Assembly: GCA_018268675.1 (NCBI GenBank)
Contig: JAFDWB010000094.1
Coordinates: 124,001-188,000 of the forward strand
DNA length: 64,000 nucleotides
Source: Actinomycetota bacterium
GTDB lineage: Bacteria; Actinomycetota; Thermoleophilia; Solirubrobacterales; 70-9
Reading direction: 5' to 3'
Positions 11,301 through 54,167 of this stretch are shown here, one piece after another; position 1 is the stretch's first letter; each line of letters opens with the position of its first letter. The notes beneath the pieces were generated by a model. It saw only the letters and a program-made list of their open reading frames with translations, had not been told where the DNA came from and made no database searches. The translations under genes were made by a program, and so were the position numbers.

Positions 11301-12196
11301 GCGACGCGACGATCCCCGCCACCGCCGCCCCGGGCGCGCCCGCGCCGCCGCCCACGGTCGCGGTCCACGTCCCGCCCCGCAGCTGGCGCTCGGAGCTGCG
11401 CGCGATCAAGATCGTCTGGCGCCGCGAGCTGATCCGCTTCCAGAAAGACCGGATGCGGATCGTCACCGCGCTGGTCCAGCCGCTGCTCTTCCTCTTCGTC
11501 CTCGGCTCCGGCCTCCAGCAGCTCTCCGCCGCCAGCACTCACGGGGTCGAACTGAAGACCTTCATCTACCCCGGCGTCCTCTGCATCTCGGTGATGTTCA
11601 CGGCGATGTTCTCCGCTGCCTCGATCGTCTGGGACCGCGAGTTCGGCTTCCTCCGTGAGATGATGGTGGCGCCCGTCCGCCGCAGCTCGATCGTCGTCGG
11701 CAAGGTCTTCGGCGGCGCCACCGTCGCCTCCCTCCAGGGCGTGATCCTGCTGGCCCTCGCCTGGACCGTCCACGTCCCCTACAGCGTCGGCCTCGTACTC
11801 GGCGTCTTCGCCCTCCAACTCCTGCTCGCCTTCAGCATCACCGCCTTCGGGGTGATGGTCGCCGCGCGGATCAAGCAGATGCAGTCCTTCATGGGCGTGA
11901 TGCAGATGATCGTCACGCCGATGTTCTTCATCTCCGGCGCCCTCTTCCCGACCGCGGAGCTACCCGGCTGGCTCGCCTTCCTCAACCGCATCGACCCGAT
12001 CACCTACGCGGTCGCGCCGATGCGCACGCTGATCTTCGCCAACCTCGACATCTCCGCCGAAGCGCACCAGGCGCTGAACCCGCCGATCACCTGGTTCGGT
12101 TGGGACGTGCCGGTCGCCCTGCAGATCTTCACCGTCTTCGCCCTCGGCATGGTGATGCTGGCGATCGCGATCGCCGAGTTCAGCGCCGGCGAGTAG
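11297..12196 (+). CDS. ABC-2 type exporter permease, DrrB type
   Basis: A 299-residue integral membrane subunit. After a 45-residue cytoplasmic Pro/Ala-rich tail and the amphipathic AIKIVWRRELIRFQKDRMRI, six membrane segments follow, for example ALVQPLLFLFVLGSGL, IYPGVLCISVMFTAMFSAAS, GVILLALAWTV and GMVMLAIAIAEFSAG. The conserved DREFGFLREMMVAPVRRSSI motif between segments 2 and 3 is the ABC-2 signature, and FFISGALFPTAELPGWLAFL is the typical segment 5-6 loop. It pairs with the preceding ATPase, with overlapping stop and start codons. Substrate is unknown. Confidence 0.93.
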   Translation: MSDATIPATAAPGAPAPPPTVAVHVPPRSWRSELRAIKIVWRRELIRFQKDRMRIVTALVQPLLFLFVLGSGLQQLSAASTHGVELKTFIYPGVLCISVMFTAMFSAASIVWDREFGFLREMMVAPVRRSSIVVGKVFGGATVASLQGVILLALAWTVHVPYSVGLVLGVFALQLLLAFSITAFGVMVAARIKQMQSFMGVMQMIVTPMFFISGALFPTAELPGWLAFLNRIDPITYAVAPMRTLIFANLDISAEAHQALNPPITWFGWDVPVALQIFTVFALGMVMLAIAIAEFSAGE

Positions 12197-15803: not shown

Positions 15804-17918
15804 TCAGTCGCCATCGGCGAGGACCGGGACGAAGGAGGGCTGCTCGGAGATCGGCCGCACGTCGACCGCGATCACCTTGTACTCGGGGCAGGAGGTGTTG
15901 ACGTCGGCGGACTGGCCGACCAGCAGGTTCGTGCGGGTCTCGGGGAAGTGGAAGGTGGTGAAGACGTGGCCGGGCTCGATCCGGTCGGTCACCTTCGCCT
16001 CGACCTCGATCCGCCCGACCCGGCTGCGCACCGAGACCCGGTCGCCGTCGCCGATCCAGAGGCGCGCCGCGTCCACCGGGTGGACCTCGAGCACGTCGCG
16101 GTCGACCAGCTCCGCGTTGGCGGTGCGGCGGGTCATCGTCCCGGCGTTGTAGTGCTGGAGGATGCGACCGGTGACGAGCACCAGCGGGAACTCGTCGTCA
16201 GGCGCGTCCCCGGGCGCCTTGTAGGGCAACGGGGCGAAGTGGCCACGGCCGCCGGGCCGGTCGAAGGTGGTGTCGTAGAGCGTCGGCGAGTCGGTGCCGT
16301 CCGGGCGCACCGGCCACTGCAGGCCCTGGCTGCCGAGCCGCTCGCGGCTGACGCCGGCGTAGTGGGGGGTCAGCCGGGCGATCTCGTCGAGCGCGTCCCA
16401 GGGCGTCTCCCAGCCCGTCTCGTGGCCGAGCCGGCGCGACACCTCGCCGATGATCTCGAAGTCCGTCCGCGCTTCCCCCGGCGGGTCGATCGCCGGTTCG
16501 ACCGCCTGGAAGCGGCGCTCGGCGTTGATGAAGGTCCCTTCCTTTTCCAGGAACGCGGAGGCGGGGAGGACGACGTCGGCGTATTTGGTGGTCTCGTTCA
16601 GGAAGATCTCCTGGCAGACGAGGAACTCGAGGCTCTCCATCGCGGCGATCACGTGGGCGGTGTCGGGATCGGTCTGGGCGACGTCCTCGCCGAAGATGTA
16701 CATCGCCTTCAGGTCGCCGGCGACCGCGGCGTCGAACATCTGCGGGATCGTCTTCCCCTTGCGGCGCGAGAGCGGCGCGCCCCAGGCGGCTTCGAACGTG
16801 GCCGCCACCTCCTCGTCTTCGACCGAGCGGTAGGCGGTGTAGGTGTCGGGCAGGGCGCCCATGTCGGAGGAGCCCTGGACGTTGTTCTGCCCCCGCAGCG
16901 GCAGCAGCGCCGAGCCCGGCTTGCCGACCTTGCCGGTCATCATCGCCAGGTTGCAGAGCAGCTGCACCACCTCGGAGCCGTACATGTGCTCGGTCACGCC
17001 GAGGCCCCAGAGGAGCGACCCGCTCGCCGCCTCGCCGTAGAGGCGTGCCGCCGCTTCCAGGTCGGCGGCGGGAATGCCGGCGATCTCCTCGACCGCGGCA
17101 GGGTCGTAGCCCTCGAGCAGCTCCTCGACCGCCTCGTAGCCTTCGGTCCGCTCCGCCACGAACGCCTCGTCCACCAGGCCTTCCCGCCGGACCACGTGGC
17201 AGAGCCCTAGCGCGACCGCCGCGTTGGTGCCGGGACGCGGGGCGAGGTGGATCTCGCCGTAGTCGGCCAGCTCGATCCGCCGCGGATCGATCGTGATCAG
17301 CTTGCAGCCCCGCAGCGCCGCCTGCTTGATCCGCGCGCCGACCACCGGGTGCCCCTGGGTCGGGTTGACCCCCATCAGCACCCCCACCTCGGCGTGGTCG
17401 ATGTCGTCGAAGGAGCCGGTGGCGCCGGAGAGCCCGAAGGATCGCCGCAGCGCGAAGGACGTCGGCGAGTGGCAGACCCGCGAGCAGTTGTCGATGTTGT
17501 TGGTGCCGACCGCGGCGCGGATCAGGCGCTGCATCGCGTAGCAGTCCTCGTTGGTGGCGCGCGAGGAGGCGAGGCCCGCGATCGCGTCGGGGCCGTGGGC
17601 GGCCTTGACCCGTTCCAGTTCGGCGACGATGCGCCCGAGCGCCTCCTCCCAGCTCGCCGGCCGCAGCTCGCCGTCCTCGCGGATCAGCGGCGTCCGCAGG
17701 CGGTCCGGGGAGCGGCTGAACCCGTGGGCAAAGCGGCCCTTGAGGCAGGTGTGGCCGTGGTTCGCGGGGCCGTCGAGCGGGCCGATCGAGACGATGCGCC
17801 CGTCGATCGCCCGCGTCTCGAGCCGACAGCCGACGCCGCAGTAGCCGCAGGTCGTCGCCGCGACGCGATCGAATCTCTCCTCCGCCGCCGGTGCCTCGGG
17901 GATGGTCGCGTTTGCCAT
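15804..17918 (-). CDS. fdhA: Formate dehydrogenase catalytic subunit, Mo/4Fe-4S
   Basis: A 704-residue molybdopterin oxidoreductase oxidising formate to CO2. The N-terminal [4Fe-4S] site is CGYCGVGC (Cys24, 27, 31) with Cys58 in HTCLKGRF. The metal ligand is Cys149 in NCSRVCHSPTS, where some enzymes use selenocysteine; the neighbouring His150 is conserved. Other marks are GVNPTQGHPVVGARI, VLPASAFLEKEGTFINAERR and the C-terminal molydopterin-binding domain with VLVTGRILQHYNAGTMTRRT. No Tat signal, so cytoplasmic. The ATG at 17918 has GAGAGGAG upstream. It follows the electron-transfer subunit by two bases and precedes mobA. Confidence 0.93.
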   Translation of the reverse strand: MANATIPEAPAAEERFDRVAATTCGYCGVGCRLETRAIDGRIVSIGPLDGPANHGHTCLKGRFAHGFSRSPDRLRTPLIREDGELRPASWEEALGRIVAELERVKAAHGPDAIAGLASSRATNEDCYAMQRLIRAAVGTNNIDNCSRVCHSPTSFALRRSFGLSGATGSFDDIDHAEVGVLMGVNPTQGHPVVGARIKQAALRGCKLITIDPRRIELADYGEIHLAPRPGTNAAVALGLCHVVRREGLVDEAFVAERTEGYEAVEELLEGYDPAAVEEIAGIPAADLEAAARLYGEAASGSLLWGLGVTEHMYGSEVVQLLCNLAMMTGKVGKPGSALLPLRGQNNVQGSSDMGALPDTYTAYRSVEDEEVAATFEAAWGAPLSRRKGKTIPQMFDAAVAGDLKAMYIFGEDVAQTDPDTAHVIAAMESLEFLVCQEIFLNETTKYADVVLPASAFLEKEGTFINAERRFQAVEPAIDPPGEARTDFEIIGEVSRRLGHETGWETPWDALDEIARLTPHYAGVSRERLGSQGLQWPVRPDGTDSPTLYDTTFDRPGGRGHFAPLPYKAPGDAPDDEFPLVLVTGRILQHYNAGTMTRRTANAELVDRDVLEVHPVDAARLWIGDGDRVSVRSRVGRIEVEAKVTDRIEPGHVFTTFHFPETRTNLLVGQSADVNTSCPEYKVIAVDVRPISEQPSFVPVLADGD

Positions 17919-17920
17919 GC

Positions 17921-18556
17921 TCAGCTCCTCTCCAATTGTGCCACCAGGCTGATCTCGGAGATCGCGTCGGTGGGGCAGGTGTCGGCACAGGCGCCGCAGG
18001 AGACGCAGGTCGAGTCCTCGAAGCCGGCGTCGAGCCCGGCGGCGATGTTGGCGTCGAAGCCGCGCCCGGTCGCGGTCAGCGCGAAGGCGCCCTGGACCTC
18101 GTCGCAGGCCCGCACGCAGCGCCCGCAGGAGATGCAGAGCTCGTGGCGCAGCGCCAGGTAGGGATGGCGGAGGTCGTCCTCGCGGGCGTGGACGGCGCCG
18201 GTCCAGCGCGACCCGGTGACGCCGAGGCGCGCCGCGACCCGGGCGAGCTCGGTGTGGGGGGCGGGGGGCTCGGGGAGCTCGGAGAGGACGAGCTCGACCA
18301 CGGCGCGGGAGACGCGCCGCGCGGTCGCCTCCTCGGTCTCGATCTCCATCCCGTCCCGGCATGGGGTGGTGCAGGCGGGGAGCGGTTTCGGCGAGCCGGC
18401 GACCGCGACCATGCAGACGCGGCACGCCCCGAACGGGGCCTGGCGCTGGTCGAAACAGACGGTCGGCACCCAGTGCCCGGCGGCTTCGGCGGCTTCGAGG
18501 ATGGTCGCGCCGGGCGCCACCTCGACCGCGGTCCCGTCGACGGTGACGCGGCTCAC
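17921..18556 (-). CDS. Formate dehydrogenase iron-sulfur subunit (HoxU/NuoG-N-like)
   Basis: A 211-residue electron carrier. Residues 1-80 form a [2Fe-2S] ferredoxin-like domain with CFDQRQAPFGACRVC and PACTTPC. Residues about 130-200 carry two [4Fe-4S] clusters: CISCGRCVRAC and CVSCGACADTCP. This matches the N-terminal part of NuoG/HoxU or the FeS extension of FdhF in NAD-linked formate dehydrogenases. It would pass electrons from the molybdenum subunit to the flavin subunit. It starts at GTG 18556, overlapping the NuoEF-like stop (GTGA), and ends two bases before fdhA. Confidence 0.9.
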   Translation of the reverse strand: MSRVTVDGTAVEVAPGATILEAAEAAGHWVPTVCFDQRQAPFGACRVCMVAVAGSPKPLPACTTPCRDGMEIETEEATARRVSRAVVELVLSELPEPPAPHTELARVAARLGVTGSRWTGAVHAREDDLRHPYLALRHELCISCGRCVRACDEVQGAFALTATGRGFDANIAAGLDAGFEDSTCVSCGACADTCPTDAISEISLVAQLERS

Positions 18557-20208
18557 GCCAGCCCCAGCTCGTCGGGGAAGTGGGTGAGAAGGCTCCGCAG
18601 CGGCGCCGGGATGCCGCCGCCGTGGGCGCAGAGGCTGCCCAGCTCGAGCGCCTCGAGCAGCTCCTCGAAGCGCTCGCGCCGCACCGGCCCGTCGGCGGCG
18701 AACTCCTCGTAGGCGCGGCGCAGGCCGATCCGGCAGGGGAAGCACTTGCCGCAGCTCTCGTCGGCGCCGAAGCGCAGCAGGTGGCGGGCGACGTCGCGCA
18801 TGTCGGCGGTCTCGTCGAAGGCGAGGATGCTGCCGTGCCCGACCATGCAGCCGACCGCGGCGAGCGGGTCGAAGTCGAAGCGCGTGTCGAGCAGCGAGGC
18901 GGGCAGGATGCCGCCCAGCGGGCCGCCGATCTGCACCGCCTTGATCCGAGCGCCGTCGCGCAGGCCGCCGGCGACGTCCTCGCAGAGCTCCCGCACGGTC
19001 ATCCCGAACGGGACCTCGTAGACGCTCGGGCGGGCGAAGCGCTCGTTGAAGCAGACGAGCTTCGAGCCTGCGGTCTCGGTGTCGGGGCTGACGGCGCGGT
19101 AGGCGTCGGCGCCGCGCTCGGCGACGAAGGGGATGTTGCTGAGCGTCTCGACGTTGTTGACCACGGTCGGCATGCCGTAGACGCCGCGCTCGGCCGGGAA
19201 CGGCGGCCGCGCCGAGACGGTCCCGCGCAGCCCCTCGACGCAGGCCAGAAGCGCCGTCTCCTCGCCGACCACGTAGGAGCCAGCGCCCTCGATGATCGTC
19301 ACGTCGAAATCGAGGTCGGAGCCGAGGATCGCGGTGCCGAGGAGGCCCTCCTCGCGGGCCTGCGCCGCGGCGCGCTCCAGGGCAGGCTTCGAGGCCGGGT
19401 ACTCGGAGCGGCACAGCACAAAGCCGTGGCTCGCCCCGACCGCGAGGCCCGCCAGCGCCATCCCCTCGAGCAGCTTCTCGGGGCTGCGCTCCATCAGGTA
19501 CTTGTCGATGTAGGAGCCGGGGTCGCCCTCGTCCCCGTTGGCGACGACGAACTTCTCCGGCCCGGCCGCCCTGGCGACGAAGGACCACTTGGTCCCGGCG
19601 GGGAAGCCGGCGCCGCCGCGGCCACGCACCTCCGCCGCTTCCACCTCGGAGAGGAGGCGCTCGGGGCCGAGCTCGGCGAGCGCCCGCCGCAGGCCGCGCC
19701 ACTCGCTCGGGCGGGTGAGCACCGGCTCGGCCAGGAGGCTCTGCCACTCGGGCTCCGCCGCGGCGCGACTCTCGCCGGCGAGGACGCGCTCGATCACCCC
19801 GGCGCCCGCGTCGACCTGGTCGCCGACCCGGACCGCGGGCGAGGAGTGGCAGAAGCCGAGGCAGACGGTCTCGGCGAGGGATACGGAGCCGTCGGCGCTG
19901 CGCTCGCCGGGTGCCAGGCCGAGCCCGGCCTCGAGCTCCTCCACCGGCCGCTCGCCGGCGGCGACGAAGCAGGCAGTGCCGGTGCAGACGCGCACGTGAC
20001 GGCGCCCGCGCGGGGCGAGGAGGTCGTCGTAGAAGGTGGAGACGCCGTAGACGGCGGCCTCGGGTAGGCCGGAGACCTCGGCGGCGCGGCGGCGGTCGGC
20101 GTCGGTCAGCTCGCCGTGGTCCTCCATCGCCGCCTTCAGCACGTCAAGTGCGGTGGGGGCGTCGACCGCGTGGTGGCGGCGGATCAGCTCGACGAGGTTC
20201 CTGGACAA
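18553..20208 (-). CDS. NuoE-NuoF fused diaphorase subunit of formate dehydrogenase
   Basis: A 551-residue fusion. Residues 1-150 are NuoE-like, with [2Fe-2S] Cys75, Cys80, Cys116 and Cys120 (VCTGTACF, TVCLGFCHS). Residues 170-551 are NuoF-like, with FMN/NAD motif RGRGGAGFPAGTKWSFV, GDEGDPGSYIDKYLMER, and the [4Fe-4S] site SCGKCFPCRIG plus a later Cys in LGSLCAHGGG. It would reduce NAD+ with electrons from formate. The TTG at 20208 gives the family-typical SRNLVELIRRHHAVDAPTAL. First gene of the operon, divergent from the LysR gene with a palindrome between them. Confidence 0.92.
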   Translation of the reverse strand: MSRNLVELIRRHHAVDAPTALDVLKAAMEDHGELTDADRRRAAEVSGLPEAAVYGVSTFYDDLLAPRGRRHVRVCTGTACFVAAGERPVEELEAGLGLAPGERSADGSVSLAETVCLGFCHSSPAVRVGDQVDAGAGVIERVLAGESRAAAEPEWQSLLAEPVLTRPSEWRGLRRALAELGPERLLSEVEAAEVRGRGGAGFPAGTKWSFVARAAGPEKFVVANGDEGDPGSYIDKYLMERSPEKLLEGMALAGLAVGASHGFVLCRSEYPASKPALERAAAQAREEGLLGTAILGSDLDFDVTIIEGAGSYVVGEETALLACVEGLRGTVSARPPFPAERGVYGMPTVVNNVETLSNIPFVAERGADAYRAVSPDTETAGSKLVCFNERFARPSVYEVPFGMTVRELCEDVAGGLRDGARIKAVQIGGPLGGILPASLLDTRFDFDPLAAVGCMVGHGSILAFDETADMRDVARHLLRFGADESCGKCFPCRIGLRRAYEEFAADGPVRRERFEELLEALELGSLCAHGGGIPAPLRSLLTHFPDELGLA

Positions 20209-20266
20209 TCCACCACGAAAGGTAGGCGAACGGCCGGCCGTCGTCCAATTACGGGGGCTGTATCGG

Positions 20267-20285
20267 CGATAAACAGCGTTTATCG
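20267..20285. promoter_or_regulatory. Putative LysR-type operator
   Basis: CGATAAAC-AGC-GTTTATCG is a perfect inverted repeat with an 8-bp arm and 3-bp centre. It lies between the divergent formate dehydrogenase operon and the LysR gene, ending ten bases before the LysR GTG, so it could mediate autorepression and activation of the operon. It contains the T-N11-A pattern of LysR-family boxes. Binding is inferred only. Confidence 0.65.
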
Positions 20286-20294
20286 TTCGCGGCC

Positions 20295-21206
20295 GTGAAC
20301 GTCCGCCAGCTCGAATACCTCGATGCGCTCGCGCGCGAGCGGAGCTTCCGCCGCGCGGCGGAGGAGTGCAGCGCGACCCAGCCCGCCGTCTCGGTCGCGA
20401 TCGCCAAGCTGGAGAGCGAGCTCGGGGTGGAGCTGGTCCACCGCCACCGGCGCGAGGCGGTGCTGACGGCGCCCGGCGAGGCGCTCGTGCGGCGCGCCCG
20501 CGAGGCGCTCGCGGCGGTGCGCGACCTGACCGCCGAAGCCGGGCGCTTCGCCGGCACGCTCACCGGGCGGCTGCGGCTCGGCGTGATCCCCACCGCGCTG
20601 CCGGCGGTCGCCGAGATCACCAAGGTCCTGCTGGCGGCCCACCCCGGGGTCCACCTCGAGGTGCGCTCGCTGTCCTCGGACGAGATCGTCGGCGAGCTCG
20701 CCTCGTTCCGGATCGACGCCGGGCTCACCTACCTCGACAACGAGCCGCTCGGCGCGGTGACGACGATCCCGGTCTACACCGAGCGTTACGTCTTCCTCAC
20801 CGCCGACCCGGGGCCGGGGGAGCGGGTCCGCTGGGCAGACCTCGACGGCGCCGGCCTCTGCCTGCTCACCCCGGACATGCAGAACCGGCGGATCGTCGAC
20901 GGCGCGCTGGAGCGGAGCGGCGCGACCGTCGCCGCGGTGGTGGAGACGAACTCGATCTCGGCGCTGATCTCCTACGTGCGGGCGGGGTGGCCGAGCATCG
21001 TCTCCGACGCCTGGATCGGCCTCTACGGCGTCCCCGAGGGGATGAGCGCCGTGCCGCTGGCGGGGCCGACGGTGGCGCACTCGGTCGGCCTCGTGACCAG
21101 GCCGACGGAGCTGCCGCAGCCGCTGGTGAAGGCGCTGGTCGACAGCCTCGAACCCGATGTGGGCGACCGCATCGCGGCCGGGCGGCGGGCGCCGTCATCC
21201 TTCTGA
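20295..21206 (+). CDS. LysR-family transcriptional regulator
   Basis: A 303-residue regulator with an N-terminal winged HTH (NVRQLEYLDALARERSFRRA, AEECSATQPAVSVAIAKLES, ELGVELVHRHRREAVLTAPG) and a periplasmic-binding-like effector domain (GRLRLGVIPTALPAVAEITK, EVRSLSSDEIVGELASFRID). It starts with GTG 20295. It is divergent from the formate dehydrogenase operon and followed after one base by moeA, so it may tie formate dehydrogenase expression to Moco synthesis. The effector could be formate or molybdate, but nothing in the sequence settles this. Confidence 0.92.
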   Translation: MNVRQLEYLDALARERSFRRAAEECSATQPAVSVAIAKLESELGVELVHRHRREAVLTAPGEALVRRAREALAAVRDLTAEAGRFAGTLTGRLRLGVIPTALPAVAEITKVLLAAHPGVHLEVRSLSSDEIVGELASFRIDAGLTYLDNEPLGAVTTIPVYTERYVFLTADPGPGERVRWADLDGAGLCLLTPDMQNRRIVDGALERSGATVAAVVETNSISALISYVRAGWPSIVSDAWIGLYGVPEGMSAVPLAGPTVAHSVGLVTRPTELPQPLVKALVDSLEPDVGDRIAAGRRAPSSF

Positions 21207-21207
21207 G

Positions 21208-22431
21208 ATGGGCACGGCGATCGGGATCGAGGCGGCGCGGCGCGAGGTGCTCGCGCGGGTGCGGGCCCTGCCCGCCGAGGAGGTCGGGCTGGAGCAGGCG
21301 CTGGGGCGGCGGCTCGCCGTCGACGCGGTCGCCGACGCGCCCTTCCAGCCGTTCGACAACTCGGCGATGGACGGGTTCGCGGTGCGGGCGGCGGACATCG
21401 CTGAGGCGAGCGGGGAGGCGCCGGTCGCGCTGCGGGTGGTCGACGAGTCGCGGGCCGGGCACCCGGCGGCGGGGGCGGTCGGCGCCGGCGAGGCGATCGC
21501 GATCTCGACCGGCGCGATGCTCCCGGCCGACGCCGACACGGTCGTGCGGGTGGAGGACACGGAGCGCGACGGGGCCGACCGGGTCCTGGTGCGCGCCGCC
21601 GTGGCGCTCGGCGCCAACGTCCGCCGCGCCGGCGAGGACATCGTCGCGGGCGAGACGGTGGTGCGGGCGGGGGCGGAGCTGGGGCCGGCGGAGCTCGGCG
21701 CGCTGGCGACGATCGGGCTCGCGGCGCCGCTCGTCCACCGCCGCCCGCGGGTCGCGGTCGTCACCAGCGGCGACGAGCTGACCCCGCCCGACCGGCCGCT
21801 GGGCCCGGGCGGCATCCGCAACTCGAACTCCCACACCGTCCCGGCGCTGGCGCAATTGGCCGGGGCCGAGGTCGTCTCGGTCGACTGGACGCCGGACGAG
21901 CCCGCCGCGACCCGGGAGGCGCTCGGGCGGGCGCTCGAGGCCGACGTGGCGATCGTCTGCGGTGGCGTCTCGGTCGGCCCGCACGACCACGTCAAGGGGG
22001 CGCTCGCCGACCTCGGCGCCGAGCAGGTCTTCTGGCGGGTGGCACTGCGCCCGGGCGGCCCCACCTGGTTCGGCACCCGCGGCGAGGCGCTCGCCTTCGG
22101 CCTGCCCGGCAACCCGGTCTCGGTGATGGTCACCTTCCTCCTCTTCGTGCGGCCCGCCCTGCTCGCGATGGCGGGCGGGGACCCGGCCGCGCGGCGGGTC
22201 GCGGCCCGGCTCGGCGCCGCCTTCGCGAAGCCTCATGATCGCGCCGAGGCGGTCCGTTGCCGGCTCGAGCTGGACGACCGGGGCTGGATAGCGCGGCCCC
22301 TGCCGCGACAGGGCTCCCACGTGCTCACCTCGATGCTGGCTGCCGACTGCCTGGCCCTGGTTCCCGCCGAGCGCGACGGGCTCGCGGCGGGGGAGGCGGT
22401 CTCGGTCGAGCTCCTCGACCGGGCCACGTGA
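21208..22431 (+). CDS. moeA: Molybdopterin molybdenumtransferase
   Basis: A 407-residue enzyme inserting molybdate into adenylated molybdopterin. Seen: QPFDNSAMDGFAVRAADIAE, AVGAGEAIAISTGAMLPADA, ADTVVRVED, VVTSGDELTPPDRPLGPGGI, and the MPT-binding GGVSVGPHDHVKGALADLGA and GLPGNPVSVMVTFLLFVRPA. The ATG at 21208 is one base after the LysR stop. The C-terminal domain IV ends SHVLTSMLAADCLALVPAER. The last TGA lies inside an inverted repeat arm that recurs 140 bases downstream. Confidence 0.95.
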   Translation: MGTAIGIEAARREVLARVRALPAEEVGLEQALGRRLAVDAVADAPFQPFDNSAMDGFAVRAADIAEASGEAPVALRVVDESRAGHPAAGAVGAGEAIAISTGAMLPADADTVVRVEDTERDGADRVLVRAAVALGANVRRAGEDIVAGETVVRAGAELGPAELGALATIGLAAPLVHRRPRVAVVTSGDELTPPDRPLGPGGIRNSNSHTVPALAQLAGAEVVSVDWTPDEPAATREALGRALEADVAIVCGGVSVGPHDHVKGALADLGAEQVFWRVALRPGGPTWFGTRGEALAFGLPGNPVSVMVTFLLFVRPALLAMAGGDPAARRVAARLGAAFAKPHDRAEAVRCRLELDDRGWIARPLPRQGSHVLTSMLAADCLALVPAERDGLAAGEAVSVELLDRAT

Positions 22432-22590
22432 CTGATTCCCATCCCCCGCCCACCTGGATGACGCTCCCGACACACTTCGCATATCTGCGTCCTCGCCCTT
22501 GCCTTTGCCACCGGCAAAGGCGGCGGTCTGCGTCCTTGATCTGCTCGGTCGGGCGCGCCCCCAGTCGGACGCGGAATAGGAATCAGTCAC
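22428..22590. repeat. 163-bp intergenic segment bounded by 12-bp inverted repeats
   Basis: GTGACTGATTCC at 22428-22439 is perfectly complementary to GGAATCAGTCAC at 22579-22590. The left arm includes the moeA stop. The segment between carries no gene but an internal hairpin (GCCTTTGCC/GGCAAAGGC). The layout resembles a non-autonomous terminal-inverted-repeat element or a long structured leader for the moaD-moaE fusion, whose ATG is 14 bases further on. No target duplication is obvious. Confidence 0.55.
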
Positions 22591-22603
22591 CTAGCATGGG
22601 TCG

Positions 22604-23329
22604 ATGACCGTCACCGTCCGCCTCTTCGCGATCCTGCGCGAGCGCGCCGGGCGCGACTCGGTGGAGATCGAGCTTCCCGAGGGCGCCACCGTCGCCGACG
22701 CCTTGGAGCGCCTCGCCGCCGTCCCCGGTCTCGGCCCGCTGGTCGGCCGCCTGCCCCTGCGGATGGCCGTGAACCGCGAGTACGCCGACGCCGGCGCGAG
22801 CATCGGCCCCGGCGACGAGCTCGCCGCGATCCCGCCGATCTCCGGCGGCGCCCCCGCGGCCGACGACGACGCTTGTCCTCGATACGAAGACAAGCGTCGG
22901 GGGAGGACGCACGTTTCCGTGACGGATGAGGGGCTTTCGGCGGAGCGGCTCTCGCAGTGGGTCGGGGACGCGGGGGCGGGGGCGATCGTCGTCTTCCAGG
23001 GGGTGACGCGCGAGGTCGCCAGCCTCGACTACGAGGCCTACCGGGAGATGGCGGAGGAACGGATGGTCGAGATCCTCGCCGAGTGCGTGGAGCGCCACCA
23101 GCTGCTCGCCGCCGCCGCCGAGCACCGGGTCGGCAACGTGCCACTCGGTGAGCCGGCGGTCGTCGTCGCCGTCTCCGCCGGTCACCGTGGGGAAGCCTTC
23201 GAGGGCGCCCGCGAGGCGATCGACCGGATCAAGGCCGAGGCGCCGATCTGGAAGCGCGAGCTCGACGGCGCGGGCGAGGGCGAGTGGGTCGAGGGCACCG
23301 CCGCCCCGGAAGCGGAAGGCGCCGCGTGA
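22604..23329 (+). CDS. moaX: MoaD-MoaE fused molybdopterin synthase
   Basis: A 241-residue fusion of both molybdopterin synthase subunits, adding the dithiolene sulfurs to cPMP. Residues 1-82 are MoaD (TVRLFAILRERAGRDSVEIE) ending PPISGG at Gly81-Gly82, which must be thiocarboxylated. MoaE begins near residue 108 with LSQWVGDAGAGAIVVFQGVT, then EHRVGNVPLGEPAVVVAVSA and APIWKRE with the catalytic Lys. Since Gly82 is internal, the protein must be cut there, as is known for mycobacterial MoaX. The 20-odd residue linker includes DDACPRYEDKRRG encoded by a perfect palindrome whose second copy is intergenic. Its stop overlaps moaC. Confidence 0.92.
   Translation: MTVTVRLFAILRERAGRDSVEIELPEGATVADALERLAAVPGLGPLVGRLPLRMAVNREYADAGASIGPGDELAAIPPISGGAPAADDDACPRYEDKRRGRTHVSVTDEGLSAERLSQWVGDAGAGAIVVFQGVTREVASLDYEAYREMAEERMVEILAECVERHQLLAAAAEHRVGNVPLGEPAVVVAVSAGHRGEAFEGAREAIDRIKAEAPIWKRELDGAGEGEWVEGTAAPEAEGAA
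22867..22899. repeat. Dispersed palindrome, family F, copy 1 (inside the MoaD-MoaE gene)
   Basis: CGACGCTTGTC (22867-22877) and GACAAGCGTCG (22889-22899) form a perfect 11-bp stem around CTCGATACGAA. On the opposite strand it matches the intergenic copy at 30677-30709, including flanking C-runs. It falls in frame at residues 88-99 of the fusion, in the linker. Confidence 0.8.
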
Positions 23330-23817
23330 GCGACCTCACCCACATCGGCCCCGATGGCCGCGCGCGGATGGTCGACGTCGGGGCGAAGCCCGCCGGCGAG
23401 CGCCGGGCCGTCGCGCGCGCCCGCCTGCGAATGTCCCCGACGACCGCTCGCGCGGTGGAGCGCGGCGAGGGTCCCAAGGGCGAGGTCCTCGGGGTCGCGC
23501 GGATCGCCGGGGTCCAAGGGGCGAAGCAGACCGCGGCGCTGATCCCCCTCTGCCACCCGCTGGCGCTCACCTTCGTCGATGTCACCGCGAACGTCGACGT
23601 CGACGCGGGCCTGGTCGAGCTGCTCGCCGAGGCGCGCACGGTCGGTCAGACCGGGGTCGAGATGGAGGCGATGACCGCCGCCTCGGTCGCCGCGCTGACC
23701 GTCTACGACATGGTCAAGGGGATGGAGCGGGGGGTCGCGATCGAGTCGGTCGTGTTGCTCACCAAGGAGGGCGGGCGGTCGGGCACCTGGCGCCTGGAGG
23801 AGGAGGCCGGTGGCTGA
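23326..23817 (+). CDS. moaC: Cyclic pyranopterin monophosphate synthase
   Basis: A 163-residue enzyme converting the MoaA product to cPMP. Conserved: LTHIGPDGRARMVDVGAKPA, GVARIAGVQGAKQTAALIPL, CHPLALTFVDV, GQTGVEMEAMTAASVAALTV and YDMVKGMERGVAIESVVLLT. The active-site Lys and the DMVK segment are present. It starts at GTG 23326 overlapping the fusion's stop (GTGA), and its end overlaps the next gene by eight bases. Confidence 0.95.
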   Translation: MSDLTHIGPDGRARMVDVGAKPAGERRAVARARLRMSPTTARAVERGEGPKGEVLGVARIAGVQGAKQTAALIPLCHPLALTFVDVTANVDVDAGLVELLAEARTVGQTGVEMEAMTAASVAALTVYDMVKGMERGVAIESVVLLTKEGGRSGTWRLEEEAGG

Positions 23818-24310
23818 GGAGCGGCCGCGGGCGGCGCTCCTCACGGTCTCGAGCTCCAAGGCCCGCGGCGAGGGGGAGGACGAGGGCGGCGCACGGATGG
23901 CGGCGTTGGCGGAGCGCCTCGGGCTCGAGATCGCCGCCCGCGAGGTGGTCGCCGACGAACGGGCGACGATCGAGGCGCGCCTGCTCCATTTCTGCGACGA
24001 GCTCGGCGTCGACCTCGCCCTCACCGGCGGTGGCACCGGCCTCACCTACGACGACGTCACCCCGGAGGCGACCCGCGCGGTGCTCGAGCGCGAGGCGCCC
24101 GGGATCGCGGAGGCGATCCGCCTCGCCTCCCGCGACCACACCCGCCACTGGATGCTCTCGCGCGGCGTCGCCGGCACCCGCGGGCACACGCTGATCGTCA
24201 ATTTGCCGGGGAATCCCGCTGCGGTCGATCAGGCGGGCGAGGTGCTCGCGCCGGTGCTGCCGCATGCCCTCGACCTGCTCGCCGGGCGGCGCCGCGGGCA
24301 CGGCGGCTGA
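23810..24310 (+). CDS. Molybdopterin adenylyltransferase (Mog/MoaB family)
   Basis: A 166-residue protein that adenylates molybdopterin before metal insertion by MoeA. Motifs: ALLTVSSSKARGEGEDEGGA, DLALTGGGTGLTYDDVTPEA (the GGTG/T substrate loop), REAPGIAEAIRLAS and TLIVNLPGNPAAVDQAGEVL. GGTGLTYDDVTPE is the Mog/MoaB hallmark. GTG start at 23810 with GGAGGAGG ahead. It is the adenylation partner for the MoeA in the same operon. Confidence 0.9.
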   Translation: MAEERPRAALLTVSSSKARGEGEDEGGARMAALAERLGLEIAAREVVADERATIEARLLHFCDELGVDLALTGGGTGLTYDDVTPEATRAVLEREAPGIAEAIRLASRDHTRHWMLSRGVAGTRGHTLIVNLPGNPAAVDQAGEVLAPVLPHALDLLAGRRRGHGG

Positions 24311-24313
24311 GGC

Positions 24314-25342
24314 ATGGCCCGGGGGTCGGACGGGATGACCGAGTACGGTCTGGGGGTGCCCCTCGAGGATGCCCACGGACGCTTGATCGGGGACCTGCGG
24401 GTCTCGGTGACCGACCGCTGCAACTTCCGCTGCCACTACTGCATGCCGGTCGAGGGCATGCCGTGGATCCCGCGCGAGGAGATCCTCACCTTCGAGGAGA
24501 TCGAGCGCCTGGTCGCGTTGCTGGTCGGCCTCGGCATCGCCGACGTGCGGCTGACCGGGGGCGAGCCGCTGGTGCGGCGCGAATTTCCGGCGCTGGTCGC
24601 GCGCCTGCGGGGGATCGAGGGCATCCATGACCTCTCGCTGACCACCAACGGCTACCTGCTCGAGGCGCAGGCCGCCGACCTCGTCGCCGCCGGGATCGAC
24701 CGCGTCAACGTCTCGATCGACAGCCTCGCCCGCGCCCGCTTCTTCGAGGTCACCCGCCGCGACGCGCTCGACCGGGTGCTGGCCGGACTCGACGCGATCG
24801 CCGCCTTCCCCGAGGTCAGCCCGGTGAAGGTGAACGCGGTGCCGATGCCGGGCTTCGACCGCGACGACGTGATCCGCTTCTGCGACCTCGCCCGCGAGCG
24901 CGGCTTCCAGGTCCGCTTCATCGAGTTCATGCCGCTCGACGGCGACCGCAACTGGACCGCCGAGCAGGTGCTGACGGGGGCGCAGGTGCGGGCGATGGTC
25001 GAGGAGGTCCACCCGCTCCTCGAGCGCCCGCGCGAGCCACACGCGACGGCGCGGGTCTTCGCCTTCGCCGACGGCCGCGGCGAGATCGGCTTCGTCAACC
25101 CGGTGTCAGAACCGTTCTGCGGCGACTGCAACCGCCTCCGCCTCACCGCCGACGGGCGTCTGCGCACCTGCCTCTTCTCCCAGCACGAGACCGATCTCCG
25201 CGGCCCCCTGCGGGCGGGCGCCGACGACGCCGAGCTGGAGTCGATCGTCCGCGCCGCGGTCTGGCGCAAGGAGCTGAAGCACCGCATCGACGAGCCCGGC
25301 TTCCGGCCGCCGGCCCGCACCATGAGCGCGATCGGCGGCTGA
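24314..25342 (+). CDS. moaA: GTP 3',8-cyclase (radical SAM)
   Basis: A 342-residue radical SAM enzyme making the first Moco precursor from GTP. The SAM cluster is CNFRCHYC (Cys36, 40, 43); the second [4Fe-4S] site is CGDCNRLRLTADGRLRTC; the family C-terminal di-glycine is present (MSAIGG). Other marks: VRLTGGEPLVRREFPALVAR, GIDRVNVSIDSL and QVRFIEFMPL. All catalytic features are intact. It follows Mog/MoaB by three bases. Confidence 0.96.
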   Translation: MARGSDGMTEYGLGVPLEDAHGRLIGDLRVSVTDRCNFRCHYCMPVEGMPWIPREEILTFEEIERLVALLVGLGIADVRLTGGEPLVRREFPALVARLRGIEGIHDLSLTTNGYLLEAQAADLVAAGIDRVNVSIDSLARARFFEVTRRDALDRVLAGLDAIAAFPEVSPVKVNAVPMPGFDRDDVIRFCDLARERGFQVRFIEFMPLDGDRNWTAEQVLTGAQVRAMVEEVHPLLERPREPHATARVFAFADGRGEIGFVNPVSEPFCGDCNRLRLTADGRLRTCLFSQHETDLRGPLRAGADDAELESIVRAAVWRKELKHRIDEPGFRPPARTMSAIGG

Positions 25343-25684: not shown

Positions 25685-25721
25685 GTGTTCCCTACTTGCA
25701 CATAGGCCAAGTAGGGAACAC
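25685..25721. repeat. Dispersed palindrome, family A, copy 1
   Basis: GTGTTCCCTACTTG (25685-25698) pairs perfectly with CAAGTAGGGAACAC (25708-25721) around a 9-base loop. Flanks CCCCGGCCTTCC before and CGCAGGG after are shared with copy 2 at 54052-54090, as is a CCTAGGC-like stretch about 30 bases upstream. It lies in the convergent gap 25566-25900, which holds no gene. Confidence 0.8.
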
Positions 25722-29808: not shown

Positions 29809-30648
29809 TCAGTCCTCGCCGAAGCCCGCGGTGAGCGCCTCCACGTAGCGCGCGGCAGAGCGGCGCACGGCGTCGTGGGCGTCGGCCGCGACGACGCGGC
29901 CGAACCAGGCGCCGTAGAGGCGGTCGAACTCGAACGGCTCGAGGGCGGCGACCATCTCCTCGATCTTGGCGGCGGGGAGCGGGATGAGGTTCGGGTAGGA
30001 GCGCATGAAGCTGACCCAGCGGCGGTCGGCGACGACCTGAAGGATGTCGCCGGAGAGGAGGGCGCCGCGCCCGTCGGCCCCGGCGGGCCAGTGGAGGACG
30101 GTGCCGCCGGCGAAGTGGCCGCCGAGGCGCAGCAGCGTCAGGCCGCCGGGGAGGTCGAGGCGCTCCCCGTCCCAGAGCTCGATCGCCGGGTCGGGCCGCA
30201 TCACCCAGCGGCGGTCGGCGGCATGGAGCAGGATCGGCGCCTCGAAGGCGCGGCTCCACTCGACCATCGTCGTGTAGTAGTGCGGGTGGGAGATCGCGAT
30301 CGCCGCGATGCCGCCGCGCCCGCGCACCGCCTCGACCACCTCGGCGTCGAACGGCGCGAGGCAGTCCCACAGCACGTTCGCCGCCGCGGTCTCCACCAGC
30401 AGCGCCCGCTGCCCGATCGCGAACGCGGGCTCCGAGCCGATCCCGGTCAGCCCCGGCTCTTCGGTGCGGATGTCGGCCCGGTGCGCGTCCCGCAGCTCCG
30501 CGAGCGTCGTCCACCGTTGGCCCTCGTGGCCGACGTACTGGCGTTCGTCCGCACAGATCGCGCACTCTGCCGGCGGCGCGGCCGCGGGCGCGTGCTGAGC
30601 CCCGCACGTGACGCAGACATAGGCGACGCCCGCCCCCGATCCCTCCAT
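29809..30648 (-). CDS. Metallo-beta-lactamase-fold protein with N-terminal zinc ribbon
   Basis: A 279-residue protein. Residues 1-35 hold a zinc-ribbon-like pair, VCVTCGAQ and CAICADERQYVG. The MBL part has ALLVETAAANVLWDCLAPFD, AIAISHPHYYTTMVEWSRAF (SHPHYY replaces HxHxDH), RLGGHFAGGTVLHWPA and LLSGDILQVVADRRWVSFMR. The altered first motif with an intact GHFAGG and SGD is known from a distinct MBL subgroup. Start ATG 30648; a longer version would run into the palindrome at 30677. Confidence 0.82.
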   Translation of the reverse strand: MEGSGAGVAYVCVTCGAQHAPAAAPPAECAICADERQYVGHEGQRWTTLAELRDAHRADIRTEEPGLTGIGSEPAFAIGQRALLVETAAANVLWDCLAPFDAEVVEAVRGRGGIAAIAISHPHYYTTMVEWSRAFEAPILLHAADRRWVMRPDPAIELWDGERLDLPGGLTLLRLGGHFAGGTVLHWPAGADGRGALLSGDILQVVADRRWVSFMRSYPNLIPLPAAKIEEMVAALEPFEFDRLYGAWFGRVVAADAHDAVRRSAARYVEALTAGFGED

Positions 30649-30676: not shown

Positions 30677-30709
30677 CGACGCTTGTCTGCGTATCGAAGA
30701 CAAGCGTCG
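30677..30709. repeat. Dispersed palindrome, family F, copy 2
   Basis: CGACGCTTGTCT (30677-30688) and AGACAAGCGTCG (30698-30709) form a perfect 12-bp stem around GCGTATCGA. It matches copy 1 in the MoaD-MoaE gene on the opposite strand, including the loop GTATCGA and C-rich flank. It lies between the divergent MBL gene and MBL remnant. Confidence 0.8.
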
Positions 30710-31924: not shown

Positions 31925-32029
31925 GGGTGTTCGGGGAGAGGACGAAGGGTCGCGGGGGAGTTACGGGAGCGCCACGGGTCCGTCACCGAAGTGGGACCTC
32001 GCCGTCGCCAGGACGACGCCCTCCGTCCA

Positions 32030-32068
32030 GCTGTTCCTTATGCCGGTATACCGGCCATAAGGAACAGC
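32030..32068. repeat. Dispersed palindrome, family B, copy 1
   Basis: GCTGTTCCTTATG (32030-32042) pairs perfectly with CATAAGGAACAGC (32056-32068), and the centre CCGGTATACCGG is itself a palindrome. The unit and about 120 bases around it, including CGCCCTCCGTCCAG before and GTTCCTCCCGTCTTCCTCAG after, match copy 2 at 45693-45745. Confidence 0.82.
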
Positions 32069-32245
32069 GGAAGGGAGTCTGGCCGAGGAGAGGGGAGATC
32101 GTCACAGTTCCTCCCGTCTTCCTCAGACGCCTGGGCGGGGCCTCGATCCCGGCGCTCCTCTCACACGAGACGCCCAGGATGCACCTCGGACGGCCGCCTC
32201 GGCCCGGAGCCTCGGCCGTCTCTCCTCGCAACGGAATCGATTGAC

Positions 32246-45662: not shown

Positions 45663-45692
45663 TGAGGGGACGGTGCGCGCGAAGGACGCCCT

Positions 45693-45745
45693 CCGTCCAG
45701 CTGTTCCTTATGCCGGTATGTCGGCCATAAGGAACAGCTGGACGG
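45693..45745. repeat. Dispersed palindrome, family B, copy 2
   Basis: CCGTCCAGCTGTTCCTTATG (45693-45712) pairs perfectly with CATAAGGAACAGCTGGACGG (45726-45745), a 20-bp stem around CCGGTATGTCGGC. Downstream it shares GAGATC...GTTCCTCCCGTCTTCC with copy 1. Confidence 0.85.
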
Positions 45746-45977
45746 GGTCGGGCCGAGGAAAGGGGAGATCCGTCACCGTTCCTCCCGTCTTCCTCAGACG
45801 CCCAGGACGCAACACGGACGGCCGCCCCGCCCCCGGACAACGCGCCTTCGTCCCTCCCCCGACCCACCTCGGACGTCCCGCCGGCCCCGAACGCCGCCCC
45901 GCGCCCACATCCCCCGCCAACAGTCGCGGCGCGCTAATCTACTTAAACCTGATCGGAATTAAGGAAGAGGAGTCAAG

Positions 45978-51247: not shown

Positions 51248-53014
51248 TCAGTTGCCGTGCGCGGACTTGTTGAGGCCCGCGGTCGGCTTGCTGACGATGA
51301 CCTTCGCGCAGTCCTGCGGTTCGGGGTCGATCTTGTCGACGATCGCCGTCCCTTCCGGGCGGCCCTTTTCACCGCACTGGATGTACCAGTCGCGGACGGA
51401 GTCGGTGGCGACGATGACGTCGTTCCCGCCGCGGCCGAAGAAGCTGTCGACGCCGGGCTGGCCGATCATCACGTTGGCGCGCGAGTCGCCGATCAGCATG
51501 TCGTTGTCGAAGGAGCCCTCGATGTTCTCGTCGGAGCGCGGGAGGCGGACTTTGTCGCAGTGCTTGACCGCGTCGATCCAGGCCCAGCCTTGGGCCAGCG
51601 AGATGTAGAGCGTGCCGGGGTGGGCCTGGGTCTCGGCGAAGGAGGCGTTGTCTTCCCCGGGGCCGCCGTCGAGGACTCCGCCCGCGCAGCCGCCGCCCGC
51701 CGCCAGCAGGTCGCCGCCGCCTTCGCCGTAGAGGTAGGTCGGCCCGGGCAGGCCGCCGATCAGCCCGTCGGAGCCTTCGCCGCCGTAGAGGTGATCGGAG
51801 CCGGGGCCTGACTGGAGCAGGTCTTCCTCGGGGCCGCCGTGGACCGTGTCGTTGCCGTCGCCGCCGTTGACGCGGACGAAGTCGACCGCTTCGAGGCTGC
51901 TCTTGACTTCGAAGCTGTCGTTGCCGGGCCCGAGATCGGCCATCAGCCAGCGCGCCGGGCCGAAGGTCGGGCAGGTGACCTGCTTCGGTTCGCCGGGCGT
52001 GGGCGCGCAGTCGGAGCCTGCGGCGAGGCGCGCCGCGCCGCTCACCGTGAAGTACCCGGTTGCCCGCGGCGCTTCGCTCCCCTTCGGTTCGGCGGGCGTG
52101 GCTTCGCCGGGAGCGCCCGCGGTCCCCGCTTCGATTTCCGTGTAGGAGACGGTGAGGTGGTCGGGGCCGGCGCCGCCGACGATCTGCAGCCCGCCGCCGC
52201 CTTCCGGGCTGGGGTCGAGGGTGACGTAGGCGGAGCCGCGCGGCGCCGGTTCCCTGCCGCAGGAGATGCGGACCGCACCGCCCTCGCACTTGTCGTCGCC
52301 CTGGCCGCCGTTCAGCGTGTCGCGCCCGCCGCCGCCGCGGATCGTGTCGTTGCCGGGCCCGCCGACGATCAGGTTGGGGTGCTTGTCGCCGATCAGGGTG
52401 TCGTGGAAGGCGGAGCCTTCGATCGACTCGAAGCGGAAGAGGCGGTCGTGGCCGTCGCCGAGCGCCTTGTGCCGGGGCAGCGAGACCCAGACACCGCTGC
52501 CCTTGCGGCCCGCCACCGCGGTCGAGAAGGAGGCGATGTCACCCTTGCCGGGGCCGCCGTCCATGCGGTCGTAGCCGTAGTCGCCGCGGACGAGGTCTTC
52601 GTTGCCGGGGCCGCCGTTGACGGTGTCGATGCCGAGCCCGCCGCTCACTTCGTCGCGGTTGCCGGGGCCGCCGCTGACGTGGTCGTCGCCGAGGTCGCCG
52701 AAGACGCGGTCGGTCCCCTGGCCGCCTTCGATCCAGTCGTTGCCGCGGCCGCCGTGGATCAGATCGTTCCCCGGGCCGCCGCAGATGACGTCGTTGCCGA
52801 GCCCGCCGTAGACGGTGTCGTCGCCCGGCCCGGCCCAGATCACGTCGGCCTTGTCGGTGCCGTGGATGACGTCGTTGCCGCCGGTGCCGACGATCGTCGC
52901 CTTCCTCCCGTCGCACATCGGCGTGGCGCCGGTTTCGGCGGCGGCGGGGGTGACGGCGAGGAAGGCGCCGATCGCGCAGGCGAGCAGGACGATGGGGACG
53001 AGACGGCGCGACAC
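51248..53014 (-). CDS. RTX-repeat (hemolysin-type calcium-binding) exported protein
   Basis: A 588-residue protein. Starts at GTG 53014 with SRRLVPIVLLACAIGAFLAV, a signal peptide ending TPAAAE. Residues about 40-155 and 175-215 carry tandem GGxGxDxU nonapeptides such as GGNDVIHGTDKADVIWAGPG and GDDTVYGGLGNDVICGGPGN; another set lies near 340-420 and 500-530. These bind Ca2+ and form beta-rolls. No lipase or protease catalytic domain was recognised between them. RTX repeats are usually exported; here a Sec signal rather than a type I system is used. Highly repetitive, so assembly errors are possible. Confidence 0.87.
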   Translation of the reverse strand: MSRRLVPIVLLACAIGAFLAVTPAAAETGATPMCDGRKATIVGTGGNDVIHGTDKADVIWAGPGDDTVYGGLGNDVICGGPGNDLIHGGRGNDWIEGGQGTDRVFGDLGDDHVSGGPGNRDEVSGGLGIDTVNGGPGNEDLVRGDYGYDRMDGGPGKGDIASFSTAVAGRKGSGVWVSLPRHKALGDGHDRLFRFESIEGSAFHDTLIGDKHPNLIVGGPGNDTIRGGGGRDTLNGGQGDDKCEGGAVRISCGREPAPRGSAYVTLDPSPEGGGGLQIVGGAGPDHLTVSYTEIEAGTAGAPGEATPAEPKGSEAPRATGYFTVSGAARLAAGSDCAPTPGEPKQVTCPTFGPARWLMADLGPGNDSFEVKSSLEAVDFVRVNGGDGNDTVHGGPEEDLLQSGPGSDHLYGGEGSDGLIGGLPGPTYLYGEGGGDLLAAGGGCAGGVLDGGPGEDNASFAETQAHPGTLYISLAQGWAWIDAVKHCDKVRLPRSDENIEGSFDNDMLIGDSRANVMIGQPGVDSFFGRGGNDVIVATDSVRDWYIQCGEKGRPEGTAIVDKIDPEPQDCAKVIVSKPTAGLNKSAHGN

Positions 53015-53980: not shown

Positions 53981-54051
53981 CGGGGAAAGCTGGCGCCCGG
54001 GCCGCCTGCCGCCCCTAGGCCTGCGCCAGATCGTGGGACCCCCGGCCTTCC

Positions 54052-54090
54052 GGTGTTCCTTACTTGCATATATGGCAAGTAAGGAACACC
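54052..54090. repeat. Dispersed palindrome, family A, copy 2
   Basis: GGTGTTCCTTACTTGC (54052-54067) pairs perfectly with GCAAGTAAGGAACACC (54075-54090) around ATATATG. It shares CCCCGGCCTTCC and CGCAGGG flanks with copy 1 at 25685-25721. It differs by paired changes in the stem (CCCTAC/GTAGGG versus CCTTAC/GTAAGG), evidence for selection on pairing or gene conversion. Confidence 0.85.
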
Positions 54091-54167
54091 GCAGGGATCG
54101 GGGGACGCCGGGCGCGCCCGGGCGCCGCGAGGTGCCGGCCGCCCGGCCCTTCGGGTACAACCGTTCT

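What the first reader, a model, noticed from the sequence alone, without database searches (positions are those of the whole stretch)
22850..22910. Palindromic element in frame in the linker of the MoaD-MoaE fusion
Gly81-Gly82 of the MoaD part is followed by a linker encoded by a perfect 11-bp palindrome (22867-22899). Its second copy (30677-30709) is intergenic and on the other strand. The predicted linker peptide DDACPRYEDKRRG has a close copy in the upstream frame before the MBL gene (DACLRYADKRRGR). This looks like an inserted mobile palindrome that became protein, like RPEs, at a spot that must be proteolysed for MoaD to work. It might even have created the fusion by joining moaD and moaE.
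Basis: partly seen in the sequence, partly recalled or inferred. Interest (0 to 1): 0.82.

Follow-up and report, generated by a model that had tools for sequence, protein, structure and literature searches.

The report
Mobile DNA palindromes translated inside enzymes
A short dispersed DNA palindrome, present about 50 times in this uncultured actinobacterium, has landed in frame in MoaD-MoaE and at least eight other proteins, and related species carry different palindromes at some of the same protein sites, so these enzymes keep gaining and changing small inserts made of mobile DNA.

Summary
The 33-bp palindrome at 22867-22899 is one of about 50 copies in this genome (51 pattern hits). Three hits occur in one congener, one in another, and none in the other 229 genomes of the order. 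Nine copies lie in frame inside genes: MoaD-MoaE, homoserine kinase, ThiO, dihydrolipoamide acyltransferase, DNA methylase, wax ester synthase and others. Most of the rest sit just downstream of stop codons, as REPs do. In MoaD-MoaE and homoserine kinase the net insert is 45 nt, and relatives show the empty site.

The palindrome did not create the fusion: MoaD-MoaE is fused across the family, almost always without a palindrome. It sits five to six residues after Gly82, in a predicted disordered linker.

The most surprising result is that orthologous protein sites hold different palindromes in different species (MoaD-MoaE: 3 species; ThiO: 3; isoleucyl-tRNA synthetase: 3-4). Several families with covarying stems exist, restricted to one genus. 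No RAYT-type transposase was found in seven genomes.

Best filing: an RPE/REP-like intragenic mobile palindrome, as a new untagged variant in an actinobacterial lineage. The mover and the reason for site re-use are unknown. Expression and proteolysis are untested.

The parts
22604..23329 (+). moaX-type gene, MoaD-MoaE fusion (241 aa); ThiS domain residues 5-82, MoaE domain residues 106-212
   Evidence: orthologues
22859..22903 (+). net 45-nt (15-codon) insertion relative to orthologue G042 (linker APA|RTH); exact ends ambiguous by a few nt
   Evidence: protein and DNA alignment; palindrome core 33 nt plus about 6 nt of C-rich/G-rich edge on each side
22867..22899 (+). palindrome copy 1, encodes residues 88-99 (DDACPRYEDKRR) of the linker
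   Evidence: linker residues 80-98 have pLDDT < 50 in the model
22844..22849 (+). codons of Gly81-Gly82, predicted processing site by analogy with M. tuberculosis MoaX
   Evidence: PMC4326299; inference for this organism
30677..30709 (-). palindrome copy 2, intergenic between divergent genes (MBL-like gene starting at 30648 and a gene starting at 30999)
32023..32077 (.). member of a second palindrome family (CTGTTCCTTATG...CATAAGGAACAG)
45691..45745 (.). member of the same second palindrome family
25685..25721 (.). intergenic member of a third palindrome family (GTGTTCCYTACTTG...CAAGTARGGAACAC)
   Evidence: further members
54051..54091 (.). intergenic member of the same third palindrome family

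Best explanation
The element is a roughly 45-bp mobile palindrome: a conserved 33-bp core CGACGCTTGTY-NCN-ATA-CGNN-RACAAGCGTCG with softer C-rich/G-rich edges. It has been copied to about 50 places in this genome. It belongs to a set of palindrome families limited to one genus of Solirubrobacterales and behaves like REPs/RPEs. It inserts its own length without a detectable target duplication. Copies survive mainly just downstream of stop codons, and inside genes only where a stop-free insert is tolerated (interdomain linkers and loops); the unit is open in all six frames. In MoaD-MoaE it landed after the Gly-Gly processing site, so after cleavage it would form part of a floppy N-terminal tail of MoaE, probably nearly neutral. 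Over time, resident palindromes at tolerant sites decay, change arm by arm with compensation, or are exchanged for members of the family now expanding in that species. Shown: copy number, distribution, in-frame positions, empty sites, different palindromes at the same sites, stem covariation. Inferred: that copying is transposition-like, neutrality, exchange. Unknown: the enzyme.
For: Copies: 52 relaxed and 51 strict pattern hits in this genome; 3 in G037, 1 in G032, none in the other 229 genomes of the order. Boundaries are sharp at the 33-bp core, with unrelated flanks. Nine of 50 copies are in frame in genes though 86% of the DNA is coding, a strong deficit, p about 3e-27. Peptides DAC.R[YI]EDKRR (4) and TLV.DTKTSV (5) occur in MoaD-MoaE, ThrB, ThiO, E2, C5-methylase, WS/DGAT, AddB-like and two other proteins. 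Eighteen of 29 measurable intergenic copies lie within 30 nt of a gene 3' end against 18% expected; no target duplication was found. Empty sites: ThrB is 14-15 aa shorter in all six relatives; MoaX is 15 aa shorter in G042. Different palindromes at one site: MoaX in G000/G037/G038, ThiO in G000/G037/G042, IleRS in G000/G037/G038 and a weaker one in G041. The second family covaries: 97.9% of cells paired, 30 double-changed cells against 9.5 in shuffles. The linker is disordered in the AlphaFold model.
Against: No insertion event was seen within a species; gain is inferred from relatives. Absence in sister genomes could partly be precise loss: the MoaX pattern on the tree (G037 with, its sister G039 without) needs either three gains or one gain plus losses. 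Gene calls for the 50 copies come from a home-made coding model. No expression or protein data exist. No mobilising enzyme was identified. The genomes are draft metagenome assemblies. The 45-bp length rests on two sites.
Confidence: 0.85

Rival explanations
1. Ancient insertions inherited vertically, with palindromes that diverge in place because quasi-palindrome correction during replication changes both arms at once; little or no recent movement.
For: IleRS in G000 and G037 carries palindromes that differ only by compensated inner-stem changes. The E2 linker copy is shared by G000 and G037, and it is G037's only exact-arm hit. G037 and G038 MoaX palindromes share the core CCTTGGT..CCC-AGA-GGG.GAC. 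An unbiased comparison finds about three of eight G000/G037 sites shared.
Against: The G000 copies at MoaX, ThiO and ThrB are near-identical to a family of about 50 that is nearly absent elsewhere, which divergence in place cannot give. The ThrB site is empty in all six relatives. About half of the unbiased sites are present in one species only.
Confidence: 0.15
2. The palindromes are functional RNA hairpins (bidirectional terminators or mRNA 3'-end stabilisers) kept by selection, and in-gene copies are by-products.
For: Strong enrichment just downstream of stop codons, mostly between convergent or co-directional genes; a stable predicted hairpin; stem covariation.
Against: Nine copies lie inside genes of conserved enzymes and are read through. 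The families are confined to one genus and swing from 3 to 81 copies between its species. The same 3'-end bias is typical of REPs that are considered mobile (PMC3733652). It does not exclude a side benefit.
Confidence: 0.1
3. The insert is an adaptive linker that tunes cleavage or flexibility of the MoaD-MoaE fusion.
For: Three species carry an insert in this linker, each a different one; the linker is next to the processing site known from M. tuberculosis MoaX (PMC4326299).
Against: The encoded peptides differ between species. The same peptide occurs in unrelated enzymes. Close relatives do without it, as do about 75 of 78 further linkers scanned.
Confidence: 0.05
4. The palindrome created the gene fusion by joining moaD and moaE.
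For: Only its position between the two domains.
Against: The fusion is found in most genera of the family and in other families without a palindrome.
Confidence: 0.01

Closest known systems
Rickettsia palindromic elements (RPE), especially RPE-4/-6/-7
   Same: Dispersed palindromes found in frame inside conserved genes without breaking them. The encoded stretch is solvent-exposed or in linkers. Different RPE groups are reported at or near the same loci of orthologues (PMC3767692).
   Different: No sequence relation is claimed (not tested by search). GC-rich, 33-55 bp against 100-150 bp for RPEs in general. Actinobacterial host. Mostly intergenic here, with 3'-end bias.
Repetitive extragenic palindromes (GTAG and CGTC super-families, PMC3733652)
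   Same: Short palindromes, tens of copies, expansion in single species, placed within about 20-30 nt of gene 3' ends, some inside ORFs, stem variants.
   Different: No unpaired GTAG/CGTC tag at one end (the CGTC here is part of the paired stem), longer stems, no head-to-head dimers noticed, no RAYT in seven genomes. The cited survey's text does not mention Actinobacteria.
REPIN/RAYT system
   Same: Non-autonomous palindromes amplified within one lineage.
   Different: The Y1 transposase domain (PF01797) is absent in G000 and six congeners while the control genomes ring.
Bacterial MITEs
   Same: Small non-autonomous repeats that can enter coding sequence.
   Different: No separate terminal inverted repeats around an internal sequence, and no target site duplication detected.
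MoaX of Mycobacterium tuberculosis
   Same: MoaD-MoaE fusion with Gly81-Gly82 at the junction, cleaved after Gly82 (PMC4326299).
   Different: No palindrome insert was noted in the passages read; cleavage was not tested here.

Membership tests
RPE-like intragenic palindromic element | Palindrome present in multiple dispersed copies | tested here: met
   51-52 hits in own genome, 0 for the backwards control
RPE-like intragenic palindromic element | In-frame insertion in conserved protein-coding genes with open reading preserved | tested here: met
   9 in-gene copies in open ORFs, 8 of them in proteins with Pfam domains
RPE-like intragenic palindromic element | Orthologues of relatives without the insert | tested here: met
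   ThrB 268-269 aa against 283 in all six relatives; MoaX G042, G039, G032, G040 short
RPE-like intragenic palindromic element | Sequence homology to RPE-1 to RPE-8 | not tested
   RPE sequences were not fetched; GC content and host differ, so homology is not claimed
RPE-like intragenic palindromic element | Insert is translated in vivo | not testable with these tools
   needs proteomics
GTAG/CGTC-tagged REP super-families | Unpaired GTAG or CGTC motif at one end | tested here: not met
   Termini CGACG...CGTCG are paired; flanks beyond show only C-rich/G-rich bias
GTAG/CGTC-tagged REP super-families | CGTC type: stem 8-9 bp, loop 4-5 bp | tested here: not met
   11 bp perfect or 15 bp with one mismatch, loop 3; definition
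GTAG/CGTC-tagged REP super-families | Predominantly intergenic, next to gene 3' ends | tested here: met
   18 of 29 within 30 nt of a 3' end against 18% background
REPIN/RAYT | RAYT (Y1_Tnp) transposase in the genome | tested here: not met
   0 of 7 genomes, control genomes positive; the genomes are 78-97% complete
MITE | Target site duplication | tested here: not met
   No offset/length combination clearly above permuted flanks; a short or decayed duplication cannot be excluded
Intrinsic terminator | Hairpin followed by a T run | tested here: not met
   Right flank is G-rich in the 50 copies

The most novel reading that the evidence does not exclude
Resident palindromes are preferred landing or exchange sites for other palindromes. 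A hairpin-directed, RAYT-independent process would swap one palindrome for another in place, so that the same enzyme linker is rewritten again and again, in frame, by whichever palindrome family is expanding in that species.
Probability: 0.3. Interest if true: 0.8.

Novelty: new variant of a known kind. Interest (0 to 1): 0.62.

Why it matters
In-frame mobile palindromes are best known from Rickettsia and some REP-bearing bacteria. Here they appear in an uncultured actinobacterial genus with large GC-rich genomes, with several families present at once. Because about a dozen sister genomes are available, gain, decay, compensated change and apparent exchange of palindromes can be followed at single codons of conserved enzymes such as IleRS, homoserine kinase and MoaD-MoaE. 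This makes an old question testable: how tiny palindromes without an obvious transposase spread, and whether they are a real source of new protein sequence.

Tried and rejected
Fusion created by the palindrome: rejected. RAYT/Y1 transposase as mover: not found in seven genomes. Target site duplication: none convincing. A gene flanked by two copies (L131, copies 872 nt apart) as a possible mobile unit: the enclosed gene reads as an oxidoreductase-type protein, not a transposase (by eye). Phage carriage: no exact match of either family in 2.9 million viral contigs. L160:1139 and window:9157 hits in the census were chance matches and were dropped. No paper on palindromic repeats of Thermoleophilia was found in the held library; most subscription papers are not held, and the original RPE papers were not read.

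Full report
OBSERVATION. The window holds CGACGCTTGTC-CTCGATACGAA-GACAAGCGTCG at 22867-22899 inside ORF 22604-23329, and a second copy at 30677-30709. No match is expected by chance. The ORF has a ThiS/MoaD domain at residues 5-82 and a MoaE domain at 106-212. The palindrome encodes residues 88-99. Copy 2 is intergenic between divergent genes by my gene caller.

COPIES. The whole genome (4.2 Mb, 95 contigs) has 52 relaxed and 51 strict hits, with none for the backwards control. In 231 other genomes of the order only G037 (3) and G032 (1), both of the same genus, have any. Named relatives place the genus in Solirubrobacterales. Fifty copies aligned with flanks show a fixed 33-bp core, a central ATA, semi-variable inner stem and only C-rich/G-rich bias outside. 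One perfect 43-bp version exists, CTCCCC...GGGGAG.

WHERE THEY SIT. I trained a codon-based gene caller on the window and classified 50 copies. Nine are inside genes in frame, a few at gene edges, and the rest intergenic, although 86% of this DNA is coding (binomial p about 3e-27). Intergenic copies hug gene 3' ends: 18 of 29 measurable copies lie within 30 nt, against 18% of background positions; 12 are between convergent, 17 between co-directional and 4 between divergent genes. The in-gene copies give DAC.R[YI]EDKRR or TLV.DTKTSV. The third phase was not seen, although all six frames are open. Hosts: MoaD-MoaE, homoserine kinase ThrB, ThiO-like FAD oxidoreductase, E2 acyltransferase, C5-cytosine methylase, wax ester synthase/DGAT, an AddB/PD-(D/E)XK protein, a glycosyltransferase and a membrane protein without a Pfam hit. 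In MoaD-MoaE, E2, WS/DGAT and ThrB the insert lies between Pfam domains.

EMPTY SITES. MoaD-MoaE is fused in most genera of the family (34 of 50 genomes matched the query, a few of these only partly) and in many other genomes. The linker is normally short. In G042 (84% identical) it reads A-P-A-R-T-H, and here 15 residues stand between APA and RTH, a net gain of 45 nt. ThrB has 283 residues here and 268 in five relatives, again 45 nt, and 269 in the sixth. Forty-five fits a full unit (33-bp core plus about 6 nt of soft edge on each side) and keeps the frame; this length rests on two sites.

THE SAME SITES HOLD DIFFERENT PALINDROMES. MoaX: G038 carries CCATGTCCTTGGTAACCC-AGA-GGGTGACAAAGGACATGG and G037 CAACCCGTACACCTTGGTGGCCC-AGA-GGGCGACCAAGGTGTACGGGTTG at the same place, while G039, G042, G032 and G040 have none. 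Among 78 named genomes scanned, only the two records matching G037 and G038 show a long palindrome there; one distant record has a 10-bp GC-rich hairpin. ThiO: G000 has the local family, G037 CGTCTGCACTAACTCGTC-CCAGC-GACGAGTTAGTGCAGACG, G042 an imperfect palindrome (only suggestive by score, 15 of 200 shuffles as good), and G032 what looks like remains. IleRS: G000 and G037 carry a second family with compensated inner-stem differences, G038 another palindrome, G041 a weaker one. E2: G037's only exact-arm copy of the local family sits at the same linker as in G000; G038 and G039 lack it. On a tree of four proteins G037 and G039 are sisters with full support while other nodes are weaker, so MoaX needs three gains or one gain with several losses. 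Since the G000 palindromes are near-identical to about 50 others in that genome, they cannot be the old resident sequence diverged in place.

A GENUS-WIDE SET OF FAMILIES. A scan of 400 kb of G000, 240 kb of G037 and 160 kb of G038 found 24, 27 and 12 strong hairpins against none in codon-shuffled controls; some may be ordinary terminators. One family (CTGTTCCTTATG...CATAAGGAACAG) has 35, 81, 72, 10, 5 and 3 copies in six genomes of the genus and none elsewhere in the family. Its inner stem covaries: 97.9% of cells paired, 30 double-changed cells against 9.5 in shuffles. In eight comparable G000/G037 sites, about three are shared (one of these decayed on one side), one more looks collapsed in G037, and four are present on one side only.

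MECHANISM. The best account is a small non-autonomous palindrome spreading by an unknown route. No Y1 transposase was found in seven genomes, no target duplication and no copy in viral contigs. Survival is filtered by harm: 3' of genes, or stop-free in linkers. In MoaD-MoaE the insert follows Gly81-Gly82; in M. tuberculosis the fusion is cut between Gly82 and Ser83, and mutation of Gly81, not of Gly82, abolished cutting (PMC4326299). If the same holds here, the insert becomes part of a MoaE N-terminal tail. The AlphaFold model gives pLDDT below 50 for residues 80-98. A function of the insert is therefore not expected, but was not tested.

PRECEDENT. Intragenic REPs and RPEs are known (PMC3733652, PMC3767692). 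Those papers already report different REPs at about the same site of recB in two Xanthomonas species, and different RPE groups near one another in orthologues, and leave open hot spots against divergence. The present case is a new, untagged lineage without a detected RAYT and with an unusually rich comparative record, so I file it as a new variant of a known kind.

Noticed in passing
L224:5842-5887 and L209:15772-15821: Isoleucyl-tRNA synthetase of G000 and G037 carries a 45-49 bp perfect palindrome in frame at the same site, differing by compensated inner-stem changes; G038 carries a different one.
   Followed up: yes
L202:16012-16063 (G037) and L229:14409-14458 (G000): Another family (GTTGATGGGCCGAAAACTC...) is in frame in a DnaE-type polymerase and in an aminodeoxychorismate/anthranilate-synthase-type protein (named by eye), giving similar peptides VDGPKT..FSARQ.
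   Followed up: partly
L142:3001 and L142:3567: The ThiO-type gene carries two copies of the same palindrome, one internal and one at the C-terminus; G038 also has palindromes at its ThiO C-terminus.
   Followed up: partly
L224:9629-9672 versus L209 about 11960-12005: An in-gene palindrome in a FAD/Fe-S oxidase of G000 appears in G037 as outer arms only, as if the centre had been deleted.
   Followed up: partly
L170 and L173: Apparently orthologous loci of G038 and G042 carry related palindromes whose loop is AGA in one and TCT in the other, as if inverted in place.
   Followed up: no
window 32006-32100 and 45676-45770: Two copies of the second palindrome family share a longer 95-nt block (87% identical), longer than the palindrome itself.
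   Followed up: no
window 51248-53014: Gene with many tandem GC-rich repeats; by eye it resembles a calcium-binding glycine-rich repeat protein.
   Followed up: no
window 15804-25342: Formate dehydrogenase-like and molybdenum cofactor genes (MoeA, MoaX, MoaC, MoaB, MoaA-like) are clustered around the fusion; named by eye only.
   Followed up: no
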